Source of the DNA: Conchocele bisecta | Lineage: Eukaryota; Mollusca; Bivalvia; Lucinida; Thyasiridae | Assembly: GCA_029237695.1 (NCBI GenBank) | Contig: CM055273.1 | Location: 56,657,968 to 56,721,967, forward strand | DNA length: 64,000 nucleotides | Reading direction: 5' to 3' | The notes under the pieces: generated by a model | What the model was told of the DNA's origin: nothing | The model's input: the letters and a program-made list of their open reading frames with translations, nothing else | The model's database searches: none | Part shown: one piece after another, positions 16,180-34,372 of the stretch | Layout: each line of letters begins with the position of its first letter | How positions within the stretch are numbered: position 1 is the first letter of the stretch | Position numbers and translations under genes: made by a program

Positions 16180-17138
16180 ACGACACAGTTACCGGACGAA
16201 CTGGCGAGGGCATGTTGGAGATTGTCCGATATATTAGAATACTTCGCATACGATGAACACGCGCAAACTTGATACCAAACTAACGCTCAAGCTGTCGAAT
16301 ACATACTATAGCCCACGCGGCTACTGGAAGGGACTCGCGGCCATCAAGAACCTCGCGGCGGCGACCAAGGTTTCAGAAAACGCAGTCAAGGAATGGCTCA
16401 AGAAGCAGGCCATCTGGCAGATCTATTTACCCGCGCCTCACAATATTCCGCGTCCGAAATTCGACGTGCCGGCGCCGAACCAAGTTCACCGAGCGGATCT
16501 CCTGTTTCTCCCTCACGATCGCGTCGGTTGCAAAACGTACAAGTACGCATTGACAATCGTTGACGTAGCGAGTCGTTATAAGGGGGCTGAGCCGTTGGCC
16601 ACTAAAGAATCTAAGGAGGTGGCCGAGGCTCTTTCCCGAATATATAAGAGGAGTCCTCTCAAATGGCCGAATCTTCTTCAGGTCGATCCCGGCCGTGAGT
16701 TCATGGGCGCGGTCTCTCATCTATTGTCTAAGCACAAAGTTTCTATCAGACGCAGCCGCGTCAACATCCAACAGGACCAGGGGATCGTGGAGCTGTTCAA
16801 TCGAACACTGGCTGAGAGATTGTTCGGACACCAATATGCCAAAGAACTTGTAGACCCTCATTCGCGATCGACCGAGTGGGTGGCCAGGCTGTCCGCCGTG
16901 GTCTCCACACTGAACGGAGAGGTGACCAGATTGATAGGTAAGAAGCCTGTAAATGTCATCAAGTCTAAAAAGGTGACGAGCAAGCCCTCTGCCGTCTCGC
17001 GCTGACGACCCGTTGGTTTAGAGGAGCAGCAATCGCCGATTGCACTTCCATCAGATGTTGACGTCCGGTACTTCTATCAACCGGGAGAGCTCGAAGGTGG
17101 CAGCCGCGCGACTGATCCCGTGTGGTCTCTGAATGTAT

Positions 17139-20324: not shown

Positions 20325-23300
20325 TCAAGAGAGGTTCTGTATGTATTCCATCTGGTAACACGCGTCTTTTATCGTAGTACGCCGAGAGTCCTAATTTTTG
20401 TTGACAGTACGTTTTCATAACGCCGTCTTTCATTTTAAATCCTCTATTTTGTGCTACATCTATAATGTGTTTTCCATCTTCTGTAGTTTCACTTAGTACT
20501 CATTTATATCTATCCCAATTTAAATTGTTAGTTCTCTTGGACATTCCTTTCGCAGAGTTTTTATTAATTAGTTCTTTAGAATTATCAAAATTAGTTGAAT
20601 TAAATTTTTCTACGAAATAACACTTACTAGATAACGCTATCGCCCTATCTCCGCTGAATTCCATTTTGAAAAGTTCTGGCTCTCTTTCGCTCCATTTATC
20701 CCAAGCCAACCATTTCTATTTTTCTTTTTCAAACTCGTCCAGTAAGTTAGGTCTAATCAATTCCTCTATCGTTTTTCCACTAACTCCTATATACATACTA
20801 TCCGTGTCCATCTGTATTAATTCAAAGTCTTCTCTTTTTACGTATTTGTCTAGAAATTCGTAGTAAAATTCCAACATTCTCAATTTAGCTAGTTGATAAA
20901 CCGCTATTCCACAGTGGAAGGGGCTCTTTACTGCACACCGTGGTTTTCGGGAAGATATTTCGTACGCATCTCCTATCTCTTCCAAATCAACAAAGAATGC
21001 AGATCTTAACGCTTTGTCAACACAGGTTTCGTCTTGTGTATATGTCGTATTTAAATGTCTCTCTTTTGCCTCTATCATTTTTCCACAACACGAATTGCCT
21101 AATAATTTCATTATATCCGCTACTGGTTTCTTATTTGGTTCTACATTGCCTGTTCGTCTTGCGGCTGTAACTTCTTTTGCGAACCATTCAAAGGGTTTAC
21201 CACTAATATAATCTATAACACGATGAACTCTCGTTATTTCTAGGCCGTGTTTTAAATACCATTTCAATAGTGGCGCGTACAGCAGTACTTTGGTGGCTGA
21301 CATAGATCCCACCAATTTTCTTCCATTTCCTCTAGTTCTTCCAGTATCTTCCAAATATTTTATCATGTGTTCTGGAACCTCATCAACATCTACTTCTCTG
21401 TTTATAAAAAGTGGAGACATTTCAGAAAACTTATCTTAAGTTGTGTGGAACTTCTATATCCACCTCCGCAAACCCAAACCAGTCTCCAGATAAAACTTTT
21501 ACAATTTTTTTTAATAAATTTAGGATTATGTGGGGTATCTATATGGTGTATAGTTTCTCTCCCACACGGCATATCTTTATTTAACGTAGATACATATAAC
21601 GCGTTTGCATCATACCCCAAAATAGCCTTGCAAAGTTTGTTAATTCCTGTGGAATTAGATCTAATATTTGAAACACCGGCTTCTGCATAGCGTGTAAATA
21701 CGATTGATGGACCCCCGACTAGAGCGTCTTTCATCATTTTGTATGTTTCTTCTTTTGGTGCATATAGAGCCCCTCCGGTATAACCACCTTTATAGATTTT
21801 TGTTCTTTAATGGTTCCTCTCAATAAATATTGTATAGCCACACCCGGTAGTGTTACCACATCTTTGAAAATATCCACACCTCTGTGTTTATAAAATTCAC
21901 ACATTTTTTCCACCGCTTCTAGGAACGGTGCTACATCTAAATCGTTATAATATTTCAACCAATCTCCGAAAGTTTTCATATTCTTTTCTTCGAAAATTCT
22001 ACGGCATTTACTTAATTCTGTTTCATCTAGTAACATTTTCCCCGATAGTTTGGAATACCAATTCTCTATATCTGGCAGTCCTGGGTTATCAAGTTTGTCT
22101 GGAGAATCGAACCACTCGTAAGGAAAGAAAGATTTCTGTCCTTTGCAGTCGTAGGCTTTTATCCAACTATCGTAACTCCTAGGTAAAGTATTACATCAAG
22201 AAATCTAAACTCCGGAGTAAATAGAAATATTGTTGCGTTTGCCCGTTTTCCGACCATTACTTTCTTTGTTGTTGATGCCAATTCGCCTACTAAATATTTA
22301 TTTATTAAGTTTATATCGTACTTACTGCTGTTAAAACCTATAACCGGTACTTGCTCTATCCACTGTTCGATCTTGGCGATTTGGTTTTTATGTAAATGTT
22401 CTGTATTAAACCCATATCTCAACCATACTTCTTCTCTTATAGCTTTTCCCCTGACTTTCAAATCTTCTACGAATTTTTCTATAAGCTTTGCAGGATCTTT
22501 ATCACAAATATGAGTTACTGTTCTTGAGAAATTATCTCCTTTGCTAACACTTACCGGAACGTGCTCAGCTTCGTACTCTAAACTATTACCTAGCGTTTTA
22601 AATTCTGGGTTGACATACGCCTCAAAATCATATACTATCTGATATGGATAAAGAGTAGTGTCGCAACCGATCTTTATATCTTTACCCGTTCTTTGGAATT
22701 CGCATTCCCACATAACTACTAGGTTGAATTCTTTGCTTCTTCTAATAAATGTATCTCTTCTCTTAGTGGATGCGCGTTCTTTTTTTCTATGCTTTGCATG
22801 AATCTCGCACCCGTGCCAGTAACAGCCGTGATATTGATATACGTACGGTATTGTTTTCTTGGCAGTATCCATCTACTGGAGCTCCTAAAATCCATCTTTC
22901 ACCCCCGTGTCCGCACTGTTCGTGGTGAATGTGAATTCCCTCCCGCTTTTCCACAGAATACATCCAATCGATCGCCCCATAACTGTTAGAACTTTTTCGG
23001 TAAAACGCTTTCTCGAACGACGAACGCGGGCGCTCTAAATAATTACCATCACATACTATTTTTGTCTCACCTTTCATACATTTTGGTCTGTGTCTCTTCA
23101 TATTACTCGCTTTCGTGAATTTCTGTTTGCAATTATCGCAGGCGTAAATTTTAGATAGGTTTTTAGGTTTTTTATCAGAAATGCGTGATTATTAAACAGT
23201 CCTATTGTCATTGGTTTATTACCTATTTCCTTGTAGTGTGCTGGTACCTTTTTCAACCACCATACGTCACATTCGGTCGGTTGATATACTTCTACACCGA

Positions 23301-24301
23301 TTTTAAAAAACTCTTCAACCTTTTTCAGGTCTGAAAAAGGAATTGGTGAAACCACATTACTACCGAAATATTGCTTACTAAGTTCTTTCGCTTTTTCTGT
23401 ACATCTGTCAGGTCTGATCTTTTTATCAAGGTGCATAGCTAAACACCTGAACAAAAAAAGGTCGTCATTATACTTATCTAAAGAATACATACCTTTTCTA
23501 TTCCTCAACCATTCTGGAAGTTCTCCTCCCGCCGCTTCTTTGGATTGTAGTCCCAAATCTATTCCCCTACTGCCCTGTATTAACTTTACAAAAATAACCT
23601 CTACCCATCTTACAAACTTCCACTTTGTATTCGGTCTGTCTTTTATCGGACATTATTCGTGTTTGCTCCTTATCTGACAACCATTTTTTAAAGGTTTTCA
23701 TTGATGATAGTGGTTCGCTACCACCGAGATTTTTGTGAAATATTATAGTTTTAGGTTTTCCATTTTTAGTTTCCTCTATATGTTCTAGCTTGTAAGAATA
23801 TGAATATCTCAAATAAAAATTTGTTGTTAGATACGGACGATTTTATTTTATCGGACATGCGTTCAGACTCGTTGATGTCATGTTTTTACGAAAGGATAAT
23901 GTAACTACCCGTCTTCCCTTTTCTACCTTTTCCAATGTTTCATCGTGAGCCCCCAATATTTCTTCACCTTTTTCCACTATCGCACGAACGATAGATTTTT
24001 TCTTATTATTTAGTTCGCCTGTGCGTCTTATTTGGGACAAATTATTTGTGCTTGAAGGTTTGATTACACTGGCCCTTAACCCCACAATACTTTCTTTTTG
24101 AATTCGGTTACCAACTTCCTCTGCTAGTGAGAGGTCTTTAAAGGCTCCTCGTTTGAGGGCGCGGGTAAACCGCTTCATAAACGCCTCATTCTTTGTGGAG
24201 TTTATCAGATTTGTCAACCCCCTAACTCCCAACCATTTACTATAAGTAATCCCTAGAGATTCGGCTTCTCTTCTCAAACTTTCGATTTCTGGCGTTATCA
24301 T
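20320..24301 (-). pseudogene. Polinton protein-primed DNA polymerase B, frameshifted
   Basis: The start is MITPEIESLRREAESLG at 24,301 and the stop is at 20,320-20,322, giving about 1,327 codons, the normal length. The N-terminal region is unclassified. The exonuclease domain shows Exo I (VYDFEAYV, about 22,625), Exo II (GFNSSKYDINLI, about 22,320) and Exo III-like YYNDLDV (about 21,945). The polymerase domain shows motif A (GYDANALYVS, about 21,610), motif B (KLLGNSCCGKM, about 21,090) and motif C (MDTDSMYIG, about 20,800). These define the protein-primed family B polymerase that replicates Polintons. Catalytic motifs survive, but the frame shifts about seven times and one in-frame TAG lies at about 20,713. 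It shares a TTAA with the integrase stop. Confidence 0.93.
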
Positions 24302-24413: not shown

Positions 24414-24716
24414 ATGGAGTGTGAGACTTGTTGTAAGACGTTTACGTGTAAAGACTATCTACGACGGCATCTAGCGAGACGTATTCCTTGTGTCCCCCCG
24501 CAATTCCAATGCCCCAGATGCCCTTGTAAATTCGTTAGTGCCCAAACTCTTTGTAGACATAAGCAACTACGCTGCCCTGTGGCTAAAGGTGAACGTGGTA
24601 GACTAGAGCTGGTAGAATTAGTTGCTGATCTACGAAATCAATTATCTATATTGGAGGAGAAAAATGGGGTGTTGGAATATAAACTATCACTCGTGGGCAC
24701 ATTGAAATTGCATTAA
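24414..24716 (+). CDS. Polinton zinc-finger/coiled-coil protein, 100 residues, intact
   Basis: It starts MECETCCKTFTCKDYLRRHL. Two C2H2/C2HC-type fingers are visible: C-x2-C-x12-H-x6-C at residues 3-26 and C-x2-C-x12-H-x5-C at about 34-56. A leucine-rich coiled coil follows (LELVELVADLRNQLSILEEK). This is a DNA-binding plus dimerisation layout. Small zinc-finger proteins next to the polymerase are common in this element class. It is divergent from the polymerase gene with a hairpin between, so control of that shared promoter is a reasonable guess. The ORF is intact and ATG is preceded by AT-rich 'catatacatatataatgg'. It is the last gene before the right end. Confidence 0.7.
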   Translation: MECETCCKTFTCKDYLRRHLARRIPCVPPQFQCPRCPCKFVSAQTLCRHKQLRCPVAKGERGRLELVELVADLRNQLSILEEKNGVLEYKLSLVGTLKLH

Positions 24717-25371: not shown

Positions 25372-25499
25372 CAATTTATTACAAACAAGAGTTAGACCAC
25401 TTACACACATGCTTTTGTTGGCACAGATGGGGGTGTAATGGTTGTCATTAATAGTGTATTAGATGTGTTGCTGTAGGAGGCCTATTTTCAATTTTACCG
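25372..25499. other. Unassigned spacer
   Basis: About 130 bp between the SINE tail and the first TIR of the next element. Nothing recognisable. Confidence 0.5.
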
Positions 25500-25850
25500 C
25501 CACCCAGAGTATAACTTAGCGAAATATATCTATTCTTATGTAAAAATCTTCGTAGAATCCGAAAACGCGTGTTACCATTGCGTAAACCGCGGCGAAACAT
25601 GTTATTTTTTTACATTTCCTTGGTAACCGCGAAATTTGCCGAAAATGTTACTTAATAAAATCGCAAAGGTGAATGTCTTAAATTTGACTACAATGAGCTT
25701 GTTTCAACCGATATTAAATCTTAAGTCTGATATACATTCACGTCCTACATATTTATTTATGAATTTATGGATATAAATGCGATGTACCATAGCAACCGAT
25801 AATCTAAACCAATCAGCACATTTCACACTTTTTTTGCGACATAACTTGGT
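25500..25850. repeat. Left TIR of the Academ-like element
   Basis: Diverged inverted match to 31,760-32,117. Shared words include 'acccagagtataacttagcg', 'gcgtgttaccattgcgtaaa' and 'aaccaatcag'. Identity is highest in the outer 120 bp. Confidence 0.75.
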
Positions 25851-26564
25851 TTTCGTTAATGAATTTAGCATTATTTCAATTTCGGAGGAGCACTCGATAC
25901 CCAATTAAAGTTCCCCTAATACGGAACGAGGGGGATGGGGAGGGTCGGGCTGCTCGGCCCACCTTGGACACAACAAACCGCCCCCACCCCACCCCACGCA
26001 TTTTCCCACGAAGTCATACATTTGTAATTGCATTTGCCTATGGAACCCGTATCGCATATCAACTAGGTCCGTCCCATTCATTCACATCAGCTGATTGGAA
26101 TGAAATTATGTTTGCCAGCGACGGTAACCATATTATATATACACTACTTATAATAATACCACACAGTGTACACGGACGGTGATCGCAAATACTATAAGGT
26201 ACAGTTTCTCAGGCCGGTGTCATTTCTTTGACCCATTTGGGCAACAATCCCACTAGTCAATATTTTGCTATCATTGGTTGGTGTACCTAATACAGCGCTA
26301 TGCTTATCATCCTTATATTGCTCAATAGCAGTGTTAGATAGAAACACAGCGTTGTTAATTAACGTTTATCCAATATAGGTCTGTGAATTGTCACGTACGA
26401 TTCACATGCAGGATAACGTCTCCTGTAATGTAAGCAACTTGTAGTTAATGCAAGTTTTCTCATATTGAAAACAAGCTAACACTGCATAAAGCCTAAAGCC
26501 ACTAGTCAACCATTATTTAATATATAGTTGTTGATCGCTGTTGAATTCAGTTGTCCAGTGAAAT
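25851..26564 (+). other. 5' non-coding part of the Academ-like element
   Basis: About 700 bp between the left TIR and the first ATG. Short ORFs occur but none looks real. 'gctatcattggttgg' and 'ttaatatatagttg' could belong to a promoter; no firm signal. Confidence 0.4.
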
Positions 26565-29500
26565 ATGGAGCTAGGCAAGCCCAGTGAGAACAAATGCATG
26601 GTACTGGACCACTATGTGTGCATAATTTGCTATCACGCGATTCCAGACAAGCCACACAAGGATGTCGTTGAAAGTCCGACACCAAAGGGCCTGGAGAAGT
26701 TGTTAGACATAGCTAAGTCTAAGGAAGACCGTGTCAATGACGTGTTAGGTCCATTTCGGGAAGATATTATCTCCCTTCAACTGAAAGTGCGCTTTCACAA
26801 ATCATGTCATGCTTTTTACACAAAGAAAGTCCACATCGCTGAATCCGCACAAGCCGATTCAATGTCACAGTGCGCAAGTGAAACGCCTACTCCAAGCCGA
26901 ACATCAGCCAGGCAAAGTCAGCCAATGTTCGATATTAGGGCCCACTGTTTCATTTGTGGTAATGTTAGAAAAGTTGGAAACAGAAAGGAGACATTGTCAT
27001 CAATCAGTCTAGGTACCGGGGAGTCTACTAGACAGAAAACTCTTGACGCAGCCATGCAACGGAAAGATGAAGTTGTAGAATCGCGCATGCGCTTATACAA
27101 GGACCTGTTTGCGTACGACGCCAAATACCATCGTTCCTGTTACTCCCGCTTCATTGCCAAGAGAAATGTTAGTTACGTTGCCAAGAACCAGGAAAGCATT
27201 GTTGAATCCCCATCACACGAGAAAGCATTCTTGATGTTGTCTCTTGAACTGAAGGAAACTGTGTTCTCGGATTTGAAGACAGTTGTGACATTAGTGGAAC
27301 TAAATCGTAGATATGTAGAACTTTTGCACACTGTTGGTGTGCCGGCCGAATCTGCAAACGGTTACAAGGCATGGAGACTGAAAAAAAGGCTCTGTAAACA
27401 TTTTGCAGAACAAATATCATTCGTAGCTAGAAATGGTCAGTCAGATCTTGTATGTTGTAGTACAGTGTCTGTGGGGGGACTGTACTTATGAAAGCTACCA
27501 AATTACAATCTGAGCTGTCCGATTCAAAAGAAGCATTCGAGTTACACCCGCAACAGGACGAAACGCCTGTCACAGACAGGCAATTACTACATAGTGCTGC
27601 CGGTATACTTCGCGATGCAATGAAAGGCATCCAATCCGCCAAGGAGCTTATCGTCTGAGCGATTTAAGCATAGACAAGTGCAGTGAAATGGTTCCCGGTT
27701 CAGTGTACGACTTCATGCACTGGCTTGTAAATACCAAAGCATTCACAAATGCAACAGATACAACAGAGAACTTCGCAGACCGAAACAATCTACAAGTTTT
27801 GGCGACATGTCACAATGTCATTTCCCAAAGTAGGAACATTAGTAAACGCCAATGAGTCTCGGGTTAGCTCTGACAGCCTATCATGAGTTTGGCAGTTCCA
27901 AACTTGTCAAAATCCTATATGATCTAGAGTACAGTTCTTCATATGATGAGGTCCTGCGGTTTATAACATCAGCCACCAAATACCAGATCTCGCATGAGCA
28001 GCAGCCATTTGTTTCATTTGGAATAAAGCAAGCAAATAAAGAAACCGGTATAGGCTTACTTGATGCAGCAATCGATAACTTCGATACCAACGAAAAATAC
28101 ATTGGATGGCAAAGGTACCACCCATGCTATGGCCATGGTGGTTTATCAGAGAGGAGTACGCAAGACACTCGTGTATCTGATATAGAAATACCCCGTCTGT
28201 CCGAGAGAAGTGTGTCTGTAGAAGAGGCATCTGCTACTGGCACAAACATCATGTACTTCAAAAAAACATAGAAACGGGCAGAACCAGATGCTGATGTCAA
28301 TACGGCTGCCTTTTGTATTGATAGCGAAAACATTTACATTCACAAAGCTGTCATTTCTGACTTTACATGGGCCCTTTGTAGAGCATTTCTTGCTGGCATG
28401 GACAACATTCCAGCATGGTCCGGATATAATGCTGTGACTACTGAACGATCTGCACCAGTTACTTCAATCAAATACCTCCCATTCATCGATGCACCACCTT
28501 CTGATGTTTCTACAATTTTTACAGCTCTCCATCAACTTGTGCGATTGGCAGAAACGGTTGGACAAAAGCAAATTATTGTGACTGCAGACCTAGCTATTTA
28601 TTCCAAAGCTCGTGAAATTTTATGGACGCACCCACCAAGTTTGGACTGTAAGGTGACGCTTCGACTTGGGGGCATGCATCACACGATGGCTTTTCTGGCA
28701 AGTATTGGCAAATTGTTTTCAGATGGAGGTCTCTTCAGCTTACTGACGGAATCCGATGTGTATTCCGAGATAACGGCGAGGCAGATACTGAACGGGGGAC
28801 AGTTAAGTAGAGGTATTAGGGGTATCAAGATTGTACTTGATGCAATGTGTCGGTGTTTCTTCGAAGGTTTCACAGACTGGTTGATTGAAAGTGGGGAATA
28901 GCCACAACCTCACTTAGGGCAGAAAATGGATGATCTAAGAGAGGCCTTCAGCGACAAGAACGAAGAAGGCTGTAAACATGGTCGAACAGATATTGAGTCA
29001 GAAATGCAGGTCATTGAGGAATGCATACGAATGTTTCAAGCAGAAGGTGAGAACCAAAGTTCGACATTCAAGTTCTGGATGAACTTTCTGGAGGCTGCAT
29101 TTCTGCTACTCAGGCTATTGAGAGCAGAGAGGGATGCAGATTTTGACCTACACTTAGTGTCAGTGATTGAAAGTGTTCATTGGTTTTGGGCAGATGAGAT
29201 TGAGAAGTCAATGAATGAGTTCAGAGATGACAGTAAGAATGCTGTCAAGCACTACGTTGCAGACAGGTTGTCGAGTGAACGATCGGTGCCATTTTGGAAG
29301 GCATTCCTCGTAGTAAGGTACGCACGTTTGCCAATCTGCGGAAACCATTTGGTGTAGATAAATCCTCAAAGCTCATGCTGGATTCTGAAGTTTTGTTCAG
29401 GCGTCTGCTAGCAGTTGCTAACCACCGTGACATTGACATGGCAGAAGTACTTCAACATGAATTAGCTTCTGTACCACCATCCCTGTTTCACGATGACGGT

Positions 29501-30984
29501 TCCATGCGGAAGACTAACAAGGCAGAGTTAGCAAAGAAGCTGGAATCATTCACAGAAGAATTGAACGAGCTGCCAATCGAGTCGACACAGTCCAATCAAA
29601 ACACTGCATATATCATAGACGGTATGGCTCTACTCCAGGCGTTGAATGAAGCTCACTTCAAAATCTTCGAGGATTTAGGATCGGTCGTGTTGAAACAGAT
29701 AACGTCACATTTCACACGCGACAGTACCATAACAACAGTCACTGTTGTTTTCGACCGATATGACAATGAACACTCATTAAAAGAGACCGAACGACAGCGA
29801 CGCACAGGGGAAAGTACAGTCCCTGCGTATATGGTGTCCGGGAGCCGCATGGTTCCAAATTACAGATGGTTTTTGAGGAACTTGGAAAACAAAGCATCCC
29901 TAGCATCATTCGTATGTGGATATGTGGTGGAGAATGCACCACAACGGCTGACAGATGGTTTGTCAATTGTGCTCTCTGGGGGATTTCAAAATGGGCAAGA
30001 GGTTCGCAGCGTTACTACCAATGGGGCTGAATGTTTGCATAGTCTGTATTCAACCCAAGAAGAGGCCGACACTCGCATGGTTTTACATGCTACCCAGTTG
30101 ACTGCAACACACGAGCGTATTGTCATTCGAACTGATGACACCGACGTGTGGGTGATTCTCATCTACTATTACTTCACAATGCTCAAAGACCACAGCGTAT
30201 ATATGCATACTGGGCACAGAACAAGGCATACCTTCAGAAATAGGTATATTCCAATTCATGCAATTGCTGGAGAAATTGGACCAGTGGTAAGTTCCTGCTT
30301 TACCAGCTATGCATGCCTGACAGGGTGCGACACCAACAGCTCCATATTATAAAGTTGGGAAACGGATAGCACTTGGAAAGCTGCTCCAAAATTCCGACAA
30401 ATTACAAGACATGTCCAAAGTGTGTGAGTTTGAATCGGTTGATGAATGTCTTCCCGTAGCAAGAACATACGTTATGATGCTGTTTGGCGGAACCAAAAAC
30501 AAACAAACTGGGAGGCAATATAGCAGCATGAATGAACTTAGGCTGGCCATTGCTACATCTACTGACAGGTCTGCATCACAGCTCCCGCCAACAGAAGACG
30601 CATTTAAAACAGATAATGCGTGCTAGAGTCCAGACGATAATGTGGTGTCAGAGTCATGTACCAGACCCTGATGTTCCAGACCCTATCGGCAACGGGTGGA
30701 AACGGGCCGAAAACGGAAAACTGGTTCATGTGTACTTCAGCAATCCACCGGCGCCAGTATTCATGAGAGACATGACACATTTGTATTGCCGAGACAGCGA
30801 CTGTACTACTAATAAGTGTCGGTGTTCTGCAATGGGTCTGCCATGCATTGACATTTGTCTTTGTCAAGGCGAGTGCACGAATAAGGCAGCCCAGGAAGCC
30901 ACGGGTTCTGACTCGGTTACGATACCGTCACCAAGTTTTACCTGCTTCGAATTTCTGATGATGAATTCCAGGTCAACTACCTGA
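26565..30984 (+). pseudogene. Academ-like transposase with XPG/FEN1-like nuclease and CXC domains
   Basis: One large protein (about 1,450 residues) broken by stops and frameshifts at about 27,490, 27,656, 27,852, 28,269, 28,899, 29,320, 30,350 and 30,600. N-terminus: two zinc-binding modules (CIICYH...FHKSCHAF and CFICGN...YHRSCYSRF). Middle: IIVTADLAIYSKAREILW and LRLGGMHHTMAFLASIG, likely the transposase core. C-terminal: acidic motifs IIDGMALL (about 29,612), VVFDRYD (29,745), EEADTR (30,060), TDDTDVWV (30,132) and LTGCDT (30,318) in the order and spacing of XPG/FEN1 nucleases. It ends with a cysteine-rich CXC-like domain (NKCRCSAMGLPCIDICLCQG). The start is chosen at 26,565 because the first zinc module follows at once. 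The assignment to a nuclease is my inference from motifs. Confidence 0.75.
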
Positions 30985-31433
30985 TCTTATTTCCTAATCT
31001 GTTAATATTATACACAATTAGGAAACCCATATCACACATAAATATATATAACAGAGTACATCCCGACAATACCAAAGAAGGCAAAATAGAGTAATAAATC
31101 CTAAGGGGGGCAATGAGCAGGACTAACATAACAGTAACAATACAACCATAGAAAACTACGGCATGGGTACAGCAGTGGTCACAGAGCCTACAACATGGCA
31201 AACAACGCACTCCATAACCAGCGGAGTACGGTCCCCAAGAAAAACAATAACTACAAAAAGTAAGAAAACAACACAAAATGCAACAGAGGCGCCACAAAAC
31301 AGACCCCTCAAAAATGAATCACTACGAAAACAACGGTCCTAGCAGTAAAAATGAAAAAACACAAACACATCACAAGAAGACACAACAGCAAGGCTACCGC
31401 ATGGGAACGGTCAGTGAAGTAAAATCCACTGGT
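30985..31433. other. Unassigned 3' part of the Academ-like element
   Basis: Low-GC sequence with a small hairpin ('ttcctaatctgtta...ttaggaa' near 30,990-31,024). The block 'acaaccatagaaaactacgg' and following 60 bp resembles 17,293-17,350 inside the hAT-like element, so a shared short repeat is likely. The - strand ORF 30,977-31,297 is hydrophobic and Cys-rich but has no family signal. Confidence 0.35.
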
Positions 31434-31546
<113 letters not shown>

Positions 31547-31759
31547 GGTGGTAAACCTGGTTAGGGTGGGCCGCCCACAAAGACTAGCATAGCCCAAAGC
31601 AATATAACTCACACTTCATGCCACATCCATTCAATTTTCCACACATAGTTGGGAAGATAGAGAATTGTCTAGCCAATCCACAATCATGTTTCATTAAGAA
31701 ATCAATCACAAATTATGTTCAATACCAACTAACATTCCTGATAAAACATATCGTTTGAA

Positions 31760-32117
31760 CCGCAATAACTTTGAAAAAAAGTCACTCGCACGAGTTTAAG
31801 AAGGGAGCGTTTCTGATTGGTCTAAACTCGCAGTAGTCATGGTTTCAAATATTATTACTCGCACAGGTTACTACAAATACATGTTTATTACCATAATGTT
31901 ATTGAAATACAAGTTGGCATGTATATATATCGTTTCCATGATCATAAGTATTGTCACAAAATATTTAAAAAAAAATCAAGTAATTTTACCGTTACCATGG
32001 AAACCATAAAAAAATTATATTCGGCCGCGGTTTACGCAATGGTAACACGCATTTTCGAAATCTACGATGAATTTCCTATAAGATAGTACATGTTTCGCTA
32101 AGTTATACTCTGGGTGG
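31760..32117. repeat. Right TIR of the Academ-like element
   Basis: Diverged inverted partner of 25,500-25,850; 'tttacgcaatggtaacacgc' and 'cgctaagttatactctgggt' are the best matching parts. Confidence 0.75.
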
Positions 32118-32274
32118 GGGTTCCGTGAAAAATCCATTCCCATTCCACACTTCCTTATGCATTTTGAAACTATTCAAATTACTAGAAACAGGTAATTTAT
32201 TTTCACAAAACCTGAACACATTCACAAATAGTGCAGATCCAGATGAGACGGCTCGTTTCGCTACAATTCCCATT

Positions 32275-32690
32275 CCTCCAGTCACAGATCAGGCACTAGA
32301 CTGGTCACTGGCTAGACGTCTCCAGTCACAGATCAGGGTTAAACTGGTCACACACCATACTTCTCCAGTCACAGATCAGGCACTAGACTGGCCACAAACC
32401 AGATGTCTCCAGTCACAGATCAGGCACTAGACTGGCCACAAGCCAGATGTTTCCAGTCACAGATCAGGGGTTAAACTGGTCACACACCATACTTCTCCAG
32501 TCACAGATCAGGTACTAGACTGGTCATAGGCTAGACGTCTCCAGTCACAGATCAGGGGTTAAACTGGCCACAAGCCATATTTCTCCAGTCACAGATCAGG
32601 CACTAGACTGGCCACAAGTCAGACATCTCCAGTCACAGATCAGGAGCTAAGCTGGCCACAAACCTGGCTACTCAGATCAGGAGTTAGTCT
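32275..32690 (+). repeat. Tandem array, ~44 bp unit, about 9 copies
   Basis: The unit is 'ctccagtcacagatcagg' then 'cactagactggccacaa' and a variable 'accagatgt'. Units alternate between a 'cactagactgg' and a 'gttaaactggtcacacacc' form. A related single copy occurs near 38,225-38,285. Starts immediately beyond the Academ-like element and may belong to an older element. Confidence 0.9.
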
Positions 32691-32740
32691 TCCCCCAATG
32701 TCCATATGAGACACGCCATGTAATTTTGTACCTAAGAACA

Positions 32741-34372
32741 TGTACGATTTTTTTACGACCGTTTTTAAAAAATGGTACGTATTATGTTTTACCGCACGGC
32801 GAGCGGGCGGGTGGGTGTGTGGGCGGCGGGCAGGCGGCTGAAGAAAAAGCGCATAGTTCGTGTACACAACACCTCCGAAACCGTTCAGTCGATCGATCTG
32901 AAACTATACACACGTCTTCTACACATATTGAAGATGTGCACCTTGGTGTTTTTATGCCGAAAAAATATTTTTTAACAAAAATATCGCCTTTTTAACTTAG
33001 CCATTTTTTCTTCATTTTTCTATACATTTCTATATACGGTACAGAGTTTGTGTACACAACTCCTCCGAAACCTTTCAGTCGATCGATCTGAAACTATGCA
33101 CACGTCTTCTACACATATTGAAGATGTGCACCTTGGTGTTTTTATGGCGAAAAAATATTTTTTAACAAAAACATCACCTTTTTAACTTAGCCATTTTTTT
33201 CTACATTTTTATATACAATTCTATATACGGTACAGAGTTTGTGTACACAACTCCTCCGAAACTGTTCAGTAGATCGTTCTGAAACTATACACAGTCTTCT
33301 ACACATATTGAAGATGTCGCCTTGTGGTGTTTTTATGCCGCAAAAATATTTTTTAACAAAAATATCACCTTTTTAACATAGACATTTTTTCTTCATTTTT
33401 CTATACAATTCTATATACCGTACAGAGTTTGTGTACACAACTCCTCCGAAACCGTTCAGTCGATCGTTCTGAAACTATGCACACGTCTTCTACACATATT
33501 GAAGATGTGCACCTTGGTGTTTTTATGCCGCAAAAATATTTTTTAACAAAAATATCACCTTTTTAACATAGACATTTTTTCTTCATTTTTCTATACAATT
33601 CTATATAACGTACAGAGTTTGTGTACACAACTCCTCCGAAACCGTTCAGTCGATCGTTCTGAAACTATACACACGTCTTCTACACATATTGAAGATGTGC
33701 ACCTTGGTGTTTTTATGTCGAAAAAATATTTTTTAACAAAAATATCACCTTTTTAACTTAGCCATTTTTTCTACATTTTTGTATACAATTCTATATACCG
33801 TACAGAGTTTGTGTACACAACTCCTCCGAAACCGTTCAGTCGATCGTTCTGAAACTATACACACGTCTTCTACACATATTGAAGATGTGCACCTTGGTGT
33901 TTTTATGCCGAAAAAATATTTTTTAACAAAAATATCGCCTTTTTAGCTTAGCCATTTTTTCTACATTTTGCTATGCAATTCTATATACAATACAGAGTTT
34001 TTGTACACAACTCCTCCGAAACTGTTCAGTCGATCGTTCTGAAACTATACACACGTCTTCTACACATATTGAAGATGTGCTCTTGGTGTTTTTATGCCGA
34101 AAAAATATTTTTTAACAAAAATATCACCTTTTTAACTTAGCCATTTTTTCTACATTATTGTATCCAATTCCCTATCATTTCAACTTTACACTCTACTTTT
34201 CTATCTCTGCCTAAATTAGTATACATGTTTAGCACAATGAGATGAAGAAATAATGCTATACAGTTTCAAATTCTCATTAATGTTTCTTGCCTTGTTGACA
34301 GCTTCACATTTCTGCATCTTCGCTGTCTGGCCCATATTCGACGGGCGTATTTTGTGACTTGCGGCACTCTTG
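32741..34372 (+). mobile_element. Minisatellite element, ~190 bp unit x7, HINE/pearl-like
   Basis: Seven units with 'cacaactcctccgaaaccg' at 32,861, 33,056, 33,247, 33,436, 33,626, 33,816 and 34,007. The 5' part has 'acgaccgtttttaaaaaatg' and a GC-rich 'ggcgagcgggcgggtgg' block. The 3' part is unique and ends with 'ttttgtgacttgcggcactc' then CTTG at 34,369-34,372 before TT. A second copy, itself interrupted, ends at 59,067-59,070 with the same sequence, which fixes the 3' end. A tandem core with a hairpin then CTTG|TT end resembles Helentron-type non-autonomous elements. A truncated copy is at 39,957-40,110. Confidence 0.8.

What the first reader, a model, noticed from the sequence alone, without database searches (positions are those of the whole stretch)
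26565..30984. Transposon protein combining zinc modules, transposase-like core, XPG/FEN1-like nuclease and CXC domain
The motifs IIDGMA, VVFDRYD, EEADTR, TDDTDVWV and LTGCDT reproduce in order the metal-binding acidic motifs of XPG/FEN1 nucleases. A structure-specific flap nuclease inside a TIR transposon suggests it processes its own excision or replication intermediates. I link it to AcademX from memory. The CXC tail resembles tesmin-type DNA-binding domains.
Basis: inference. Interest (0 to 1): 0.75.

Follow-up and report, generated by a model that had tools for sequence, protein, structure and literature searches.

The report
Jumping gene with built-in flap nuclease
This is a dead copy of a known kind of animal jumping gene (AcademX-type) whose single large protein joins a transposase-like core to a complete, highly conserved DNA-flap-type nuclease; close relatives in the same genome moved recently, so the unsolved job of that nuclease could be tested.

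The parts
25452..32147 (+). AcademX-type DNA transposon copy, window subfamily (family W); left end TAGTGTATTAG present, right end lacks the last 8 bp seen in six other copies
   Evidence: alignment with 11 paralogous copies; ends of complete copies
25496..25636 (+). left arm of the subterminal inverted repeat (about 140 bp, 82% identical to the other arm), starting 44 bp inside the left end
31982..32121 (-). right arm of the subterminal inverted repeat
26565..27491 (+). N-terminal frame with two CCHC modules (C26619, C26628, H26796, C26805; C26946, C26955, H27129, C27138; first base of each codon)
   Evidence: the eight columns hold C or H in 49-58 of 61 rows, most others being gaps
27846..29192 (+). 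DDE-like core, first part: candidate first Asp 28074-28076 (or 28083-28085), second Asp 28587-28589, invariant His 28677-28679
   Evidence: columns D505, D508, D675, H705 of P0001 are invariant in 61 of 61 rows; positions; secondary structure order of model P0046
29191..29193 (.). internal deletion in the window copy: 420-490 bp present here in 10 of 11 compared copies, holding the segment with the third putative catalytic acid (D929/E933 of P0001)
29279..30349 (+). Rad2/XPG (FEN1/EXO1)-like nuclease frame with all seven acids and the Lys/Arg pair
29618..29620 (+). Asp matching FEN1 D34 (number recalled)
   Evidence: 61 of 61
29753..29755 (+). Asp matching FEN1 D86
   Evidence: 61 of 61
29780..29803 (+). 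Lys (29780-29782) and Arg (29801-29803), 7 residues apart as FEN1 K93/R100
   Evidence: 61 of 61 each
30062..30070 (+). Glu and Asp matching FEN1 E158/E160
   Evidence: 60 of 61 (Asp in the other) and 61 of 61
30137..30145 (+). two Asp matching FEN1 D179/D181
   Evidence: 60 of 60 each
30329..30331 (+). Asp matching FEN1 D233; the H2TH-like GK stretch that follows lies in another frame in the window
30787..30876 (+). CXC (tesmin/LIN54-like) cysteine cluster in frame 30532-30984
   Evidence: TCR E 0.005; LIN54 E 0.0068
30914..30916 (.). 68-71 bp deletion, relative to 11 of 11 compared copies, near the end of the coding region

Best explanation
It is a dead copy of an AcademX-type DNA transposon in a large animal genome. 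Full-length relatives encode one protein of about 1,600 residues: two CCHC zinc modules, a DDE-like (RNase H-type) core split by a helical insertion, a complete Rad2/XPG-family nuclease, and a CXC zinc tail. Proposed mechanism (inferred): zinc modules and CXC tail bind the divergent tips and the long subterminal repeats. The DDE centre frees the 3' ends and joins them to target positions 3 bp apart, giving the 3-bp duplications (the duplications are shown, the chemistry is inferred). At that point the transposon's 5' strand, still attached to donor DNA or carrying a few donor bases, is a 5' flap next to a 3-nt gap, a typical Rad2 substrate (recalled). The nuclease cuts it, so second-strand release does not rely on a hairpin or a host enzyme. 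Identity of the element and fold: about 0.9. Direct role of the nuclease in transposition: about 0.75. This particular step: about 0.4.
Against: No activity shown. The window copy cannot show its own TSD. The DDE fold was not confirmed by a structure match: Foldseek and VIA lists were filled by the nuclease. Sequence-only evidence for the XPG family is weak (EXO1 E 0.38; no XPG Pfam hit). With the window piece alone XRN scores above FEN1, and Foldseek's 50 listed rows hold XRN but no FEN1 or XPG. With the 1,150-residue model no Foldseek match is under E 0.001 (best FEN1, 6.3e-03). Among 46 shorter homologues four depart at a catalytic position: Ser for the Arg in P0036 and P0040, Glu for the last Asp in P0092, Arg for one Asp in P0034, which ends there. 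L033, a frame-broken copy, gave pN 0.39 in the nuclease. Synonymous sites are at or near saturation, so no reliable dN/dS.
Confidence: 0.72

Rival explanations
1. The nuclease acts at excision rather than after strand transfer: it makes the non-transferred-strand cut at the transposon ends, a division of labour like TnsA with TnsB in Tn7 (comparison recalled).
For: Same conserved nuclease in one chain with the DDE-like core in the 61 long sequences aligned. TSD length is 3 bp in 15 of 15, as expected if the DDE step alone sets the stagger.
Against: Rad2 enzymes prefer flaps, nicks and branched DNA over intact duplex (recalled), so a first nick or an opened end would be needed. No footprint data.
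Confidence: 0.25
2. The nuclease serves repair of the donor gap or replication-coupled resolution, not cleavage of the transposon ends; or it processes RNA like its structural cousins of the XRN family.
Against: With the whole domain EXO1 and FEN1 outrank XRN (16.2 and 14.8 against 13.2), and a GK stretch follows the last Asp as in the Rad2 H2TH (K1425 in 58 of 61; Rad2 pattern recalled).
Confidence: 0.2
3. The nuclease fold is kept only as a structural or DNA-binding module and is catalytically idle.
For: No activity data exist in the calls made.
Against: All seven acids and both basic residues are invariant or nearly so in 61 rows.
Confidence: 0.05
4. The motif match is chance or the region is a host gene.
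For: The window copy has no long intact frame.
Against: 126 matching pieces in the genome; 15 insertions with unrelated flanks and 3-bp duplications; structural matches.
Confidence: 0.01

Closest known systems
AcademX lineage of the Academ DNA transposon superfamily
   Same: Nuclease-coding Academ with 3 or 4 bp TSD (passage of PMC10045372); here nuclease plus 3-bp TSD in 15 of 15. That the AcademX nuclease is of XPG type is recalled (Kapitonov and Jurka, Repbase Reports; Kojima 2020), not read here.
   Different: No Repbase AcademX sequence was on hand to compare. Details measured here, which may or may not be in Repbase: subterminal long repeat, tips of 33-44 bp that match each other only over the outer 4-5 bp, two CCHC modules, CXC tail.
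AcademH
   Same: Same superfamily.
   Different: AcademH codes a helicase and makes 9 or 10 bp TSD; neither is seen here.
Rad2/XPG nucleases (EXO1, FEN1, XPG, GEN1)
   Same: Fold, order of seven acids, Lys/Arg pair 7 residues apart, GK stretch after the last Asp.
   Different: Identity 9-14% in the FEN1, EXO1, XPG and GEN1 rows; the domain lies inside a long protein, not at a free N terminus as in the Rad2 family (recalled); the R100-E158 spacing is 76-100 against 58 in FEN1 (recalled).
XRN1/XRN2 5'-3' exoribonucleases
   Different: Scores below EXO1/FEN1 once the region after the last Asp is included.
DUF6589 (PF20231)
   Same: One of six homologues scanned reaches the Pfam cut-off over the core (P0066, E 3.4e-07); precomputed in P0066, P0074, P0081, P0092 and P0115.
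   Different: P0001 itself is below the cut-off (E 0.006).
CXC (tesmin/TSO1/LIN54) domain
   Same: Cysteine pattern and weak profile matches.
   Different: One CXC unit instead of the two seen in the LIN54 match; below the Pfam cut-off.

Membership tests
AcademX | target site duplications of 3 or 4 bp | tested here: met
   15 of 15 copies with both ends have exactly 3 bp; in 6 further examined copies one or both ends were not found as exact strings in the fetched stretch; the window copy itself cannot be tested; definition
AcademX | nuclease coded together with the transposase | tested here: met
AcademX | DDE transposase of Academ type | tested here: inconclusive
   invariant D, D, E columns and fitting secondary structure, but no Academ reference sequence on hand and no structural match for the core
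AcademH | helicase; 9 or 10 bp TSD | tested here: not met
   TSD 3 bp; no helicase Pfam match in P0001 or 6 homologues
Rad2/XPG nuclease | seven catalytic acids in order | tested here: met
   and the window frame itself
Rad2/XPG nuclease | catalytic Lys and Arg (FEN1 K93, R100; numbers recalled) | tested here: met
   K1232 and R1239, 61 of 61, spacing 7 in all 61; Ser for the Arg in 2 of 46 shorter homologues, P0036 and P0040
Rad2/XPG nuclease | fold of the family | tested here: met
Rad2/XPG nuclease | H2TH after the last Asp | tested here: inconclusive
   GK stretch and two short helices 964-973 and 975-983; not superposed residue by residue
Rad2/XPG nuclease | Pfam XPG_N or XPG_I match | tested here: not met
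   none for the window frame, P0001 or 6 homologues; the relation is below what these profiles reach
Rad2/XPG nuclease | cleavage of flaps or branched DNA | not testable with these tools
   needs protein
XRN | closest fold among metal 5' nucleases | tested here: inconclusive
   first with the window piece, below EXO1/FEN1 with the whole domain
DDE transposase | D, D, E triad on an RNase H fold | tested here: inconclusive
   columns nearly invariant, secondary structure order fits, no fold match obtained
CXC domain | Pfam TCR gathering score | tested here: not met
   17.5 bits against 23.5; P0077 18.2; LIN54 E 0.0068 by profile

The most novel reading that the evidence does not exclude
AcademX transposases are two-nuclease machines: the DDE centre handles only the 3' strands, and a fused Rad2/FEN1-type domain removes the 5' strand as a flap from the strand-transfer intermediate, turning what would be a Mu-like branched intermediate into a simple insertion. 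This would be a way of separating the second strand in eukaryotic transposons that differs from hairpins and from second cuts by the same centre.
Probability: 0.35. Interest if true: 0.6.

Novelty: new member of a known kind. Interest (0 to 1): 0.36.

Why it matters
Cut-and-paste transposases must cut two strands of opposite polarity, usually through a hairpin (abstract of PMC5714172 in the listing). A strictly conserved flap-type nuclease in the same chain raises the open question of how AcademX elements separate their second strand. A genome with nine copies that are 99.3-99.6% identical, one of them open over 1,537 codons, gives material to test it. For annotation, the result shows that the long inverted repeat does not mark the ends of such elements: ends called from it would be wrong by 33-44 bp on each side.

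Tried and rejected
Single-sequence searches of the nuclease frame and of P0001 against the PDB gave no nuclease, and Pfam gave no XPG match; a profile (weakly) and structures did. I first took the long inverted repeat for the termini and found shared sequence outside it, so that reading was dropped. I first thought that L030 shared the window's internal deletion, which would have pointed to movement in trans; the alignment shows different breakpoints, so that was dropped. The 112-nt G-run at 31434-31545 is not a feature of the family: 7 of the 27 stretches L009-L035 have G- or C-runs of 16-18 nt and the other 20 none of 15 or more. A search with the core alone for relatives in which the nuclease is replaced by something else found none among 47 hits; of the 21 proteins looked at (the 15 new hits and 6 earlier ones), 9 have no nuclease in place and look truncated or fused. 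No DDE transposase appears in the structure lists, but the nuclease fills them, so this says nothing about the core. A BFVD search gave viral XRN, FEN1 and XPG relatives among its 50 listed rows. Paper searches with Academ, AcademX, AcademH, XPG, FEN1-like, Rad2 and DUF6589 (listings of at most 20 papers each): I opened passages of five papers (PMC10045372, PMC10294476, PMC10799480, PMC9587614, PMC12730594), and only the first says anything on the AcademX nuclease; none of the 7 papers listed holds both Academ and XPG or Rad2. Kojima 2020 is not held.

Full report
What was claimed and what is there. The five motifs lie in order in one open frame at 29279-30349. The frames 26565-27491, 27461-27656, 27846-28271, 28272-28901, 28902-29357, 30321-30623 and 30532-30984 are pieces of the same protein: P0001, a paralogue from the same genome, and P0003, a homologue, align across them in changing frames.

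The element. The first repeat search gave an inverted pair 25496-25609 / 32008-32121. Paralogues showed that shared sequence continues outside this pair, so it is subterminal. In subfamily A (nine copies of 7,150-7,194 bp) the element begins TACTCC and ends ACAGTA; the 133-bp repeat begins 33 bp inside one end and 43 bp inside the other. In the window's subfamily W the ends are TAGTGTATTAG and CCAAAGCACTA and the repeat begins 44 and 34 bp inside. I fetched 27 stretches, holding 25 distinct copies. I looked for ends in 21 of the 25: 10 of subfamily A and 11 of subfamily W; the four more distant copies L020-L023 were not examined for ends. Both ends were found, as exact strings in the fetched stretch, in 9 of 10 and 6 of 11. 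All 15 have identical 3-bp flanks, and in none does the match run further. The window copy has its left end but lacks the last 8 bp of the right end seen in six relatives, so it shows no duplication. Pairwise identity is 99.3-99.6% in subfamily A (9 copies) and 98.0-98.5% in W (6 copies), so both moved recently and A very recently.

The protein. A homology search with the nuclease part found 163 proteins, of which the best 120 were listed. I aligned P0001 with the listed ones longer than 1,350 residues, leaving out five that I judged to be fused gene models (P0061, P0069, P0107, P0111, P0113), which makes 61 rows with P0001. Two CCHC modules (C18, C21, H77, C80 and C130, C133, H191, C194) are kept in 49-58 of 61 rows, most of the rest being gaps. 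The core has D505, D508, D675, H705 and D929 in 61 of 61 and E933 in 60 of 61 (Lys in one). The nuclease has D1178, D1223, K1232, R1239 and D1328 in 61 of 61, E1326 in 60 of 61 (Asp in the other), and D1351, D1353 and D1415 in 60 of 60, one row having a gap. Among 46 shorter homologues added to this alignment the catalytic positions present agree except in four: Ser for R1239 in P0036 and P0040, Glu for D1415 in P0092, and Arg for D1353 in P0034, whose model ends there. FEN1 has the acids D34, D86, E158, E160, D179, D181 and D233 and the basic residues K93 and R100 (recalled; D86, D181, D233 and R100 also appear as mutants in titles listed). The spacings K93-R100 (7), E158-E160 (2) and D179-D181 (2) are the same in every row; the others have other medians (43 against 52, 9 against 7, 87 against 58, 23 against 19, 58 against 52, FEN1 values recalled).

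Zinc tail. Pfam TCR (CXC) scores 17.5 bits, E 0.005, under its cut-off of 23.5; the family profile finds LIN54 at E 0.0068. By my reading, 12 of the 25 distinct copies are in frame across the tail, and 11 of these 12 keep all its cysteines (L012 has lost one; L035 has a stop within). The resemblance is fair, but membership by Pfam's own cut-off is not met.

Constraint. Against P0001 the nuclease of eight copies was compared. Four of subfamily W (window, L027, L028, L031) show pN 0.20-0.23 against pS 0.73-0.77. L033, whose frame is broken, gave 0.39 against 0.72. The more distant L020, L021 and L023 gave 0.35-0.36 against 0.75-0.77. pS is at or near saturation, so I give no ratio. Selection has kept the nuclease, as it has kept the core.

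Identity. In the one held passage that I found to define the lineages, AcademH makes 9 or 10 bp duplications and AcademX 3 or 4 bp, and the difference is tied to the helicase and the nuclease that they encode (PMC10045372, passages read). Kojima 2020 is not held. That the AcademX nuclease is XPG-like is recalled. Academ is reported as expanded in bivalves (PMC10294476, passages read). Named relatives found here include Pinctada, Branchiostoma, Sycon, Actinostola, Diadema, Patella and Ceutorhynchus. I did not identify the host species.

Mechanism. Shown: 3-bp duplication, conserved nuclease in the same chain as the core, recent movement. Inferred: the DDE centre joins 3' ends 3 bp apart; the remaining 5' strand is then a flap beside a gap; a Rad2 domain is built to cut such a structure. 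The nuclease could act earlier, at excision, or later, in gap repair. The internal deletions in the window copy and in L030 have different breakpoints; they fit interrupted gap repair but do not prove it.

Verdict. The kind is known; the value lies in a clear catalytic map, correct ends, and a genome with recent copies in which the nuclease question can be tested.

Noticed in passing
window 20716-24301 (minus) and 16253-17005 (plus): Frames that look by eye like a Polinton/Maverick DNA polymerase B in pieces and an integrase; not tested with any family search, described only.
   Followed up: no
window 31434-31545: G-run of 112 nt broken by one A inside the element; 7 of 27 fetched stretches have G- or C-runs of 16-18 nt, the others none of 15 or more. 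Expansion or assembly effect.
   Followed up: partly
window 32754-34194 and 32296-32717: Tandem arrays of a 190-bp unit (7 copies) and a 44-bp unit (7 copies) just right of the element; a stretch of the 190-bp unit also abuts the left end of the copy in L032.
   Followed up: partly
L030 (G000:C627): Another copy of the window's subfamily with complete ends and TSD ATC has its own internal deletion in the same core area, with different breakpoints.
   Followed up: yes
element ends, subfamily W: Termini TAGTG...CACTA with 3-bp duplications are the CACTA-element end motif in reverse orientation (CACTA ends recalled); probably coincidence.
   Followed up: no
window 24414-24716: Small frame with C2H2 zinc fingers (zf-C2H2_4 E 2.4e-05, two stretches, below cut-off) left of the element.
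   Followed up: no
P0061, P0067, P0069, P0111, P0113, P0129-P0132: Public gene models named as TDRD12, ubiquitin hydrolases 16 and 45, KIF12, SHANK1 and Ankyrin-1 match parts of this transposase, most likely annotation fusions with transposon copies.
   Followed up: no
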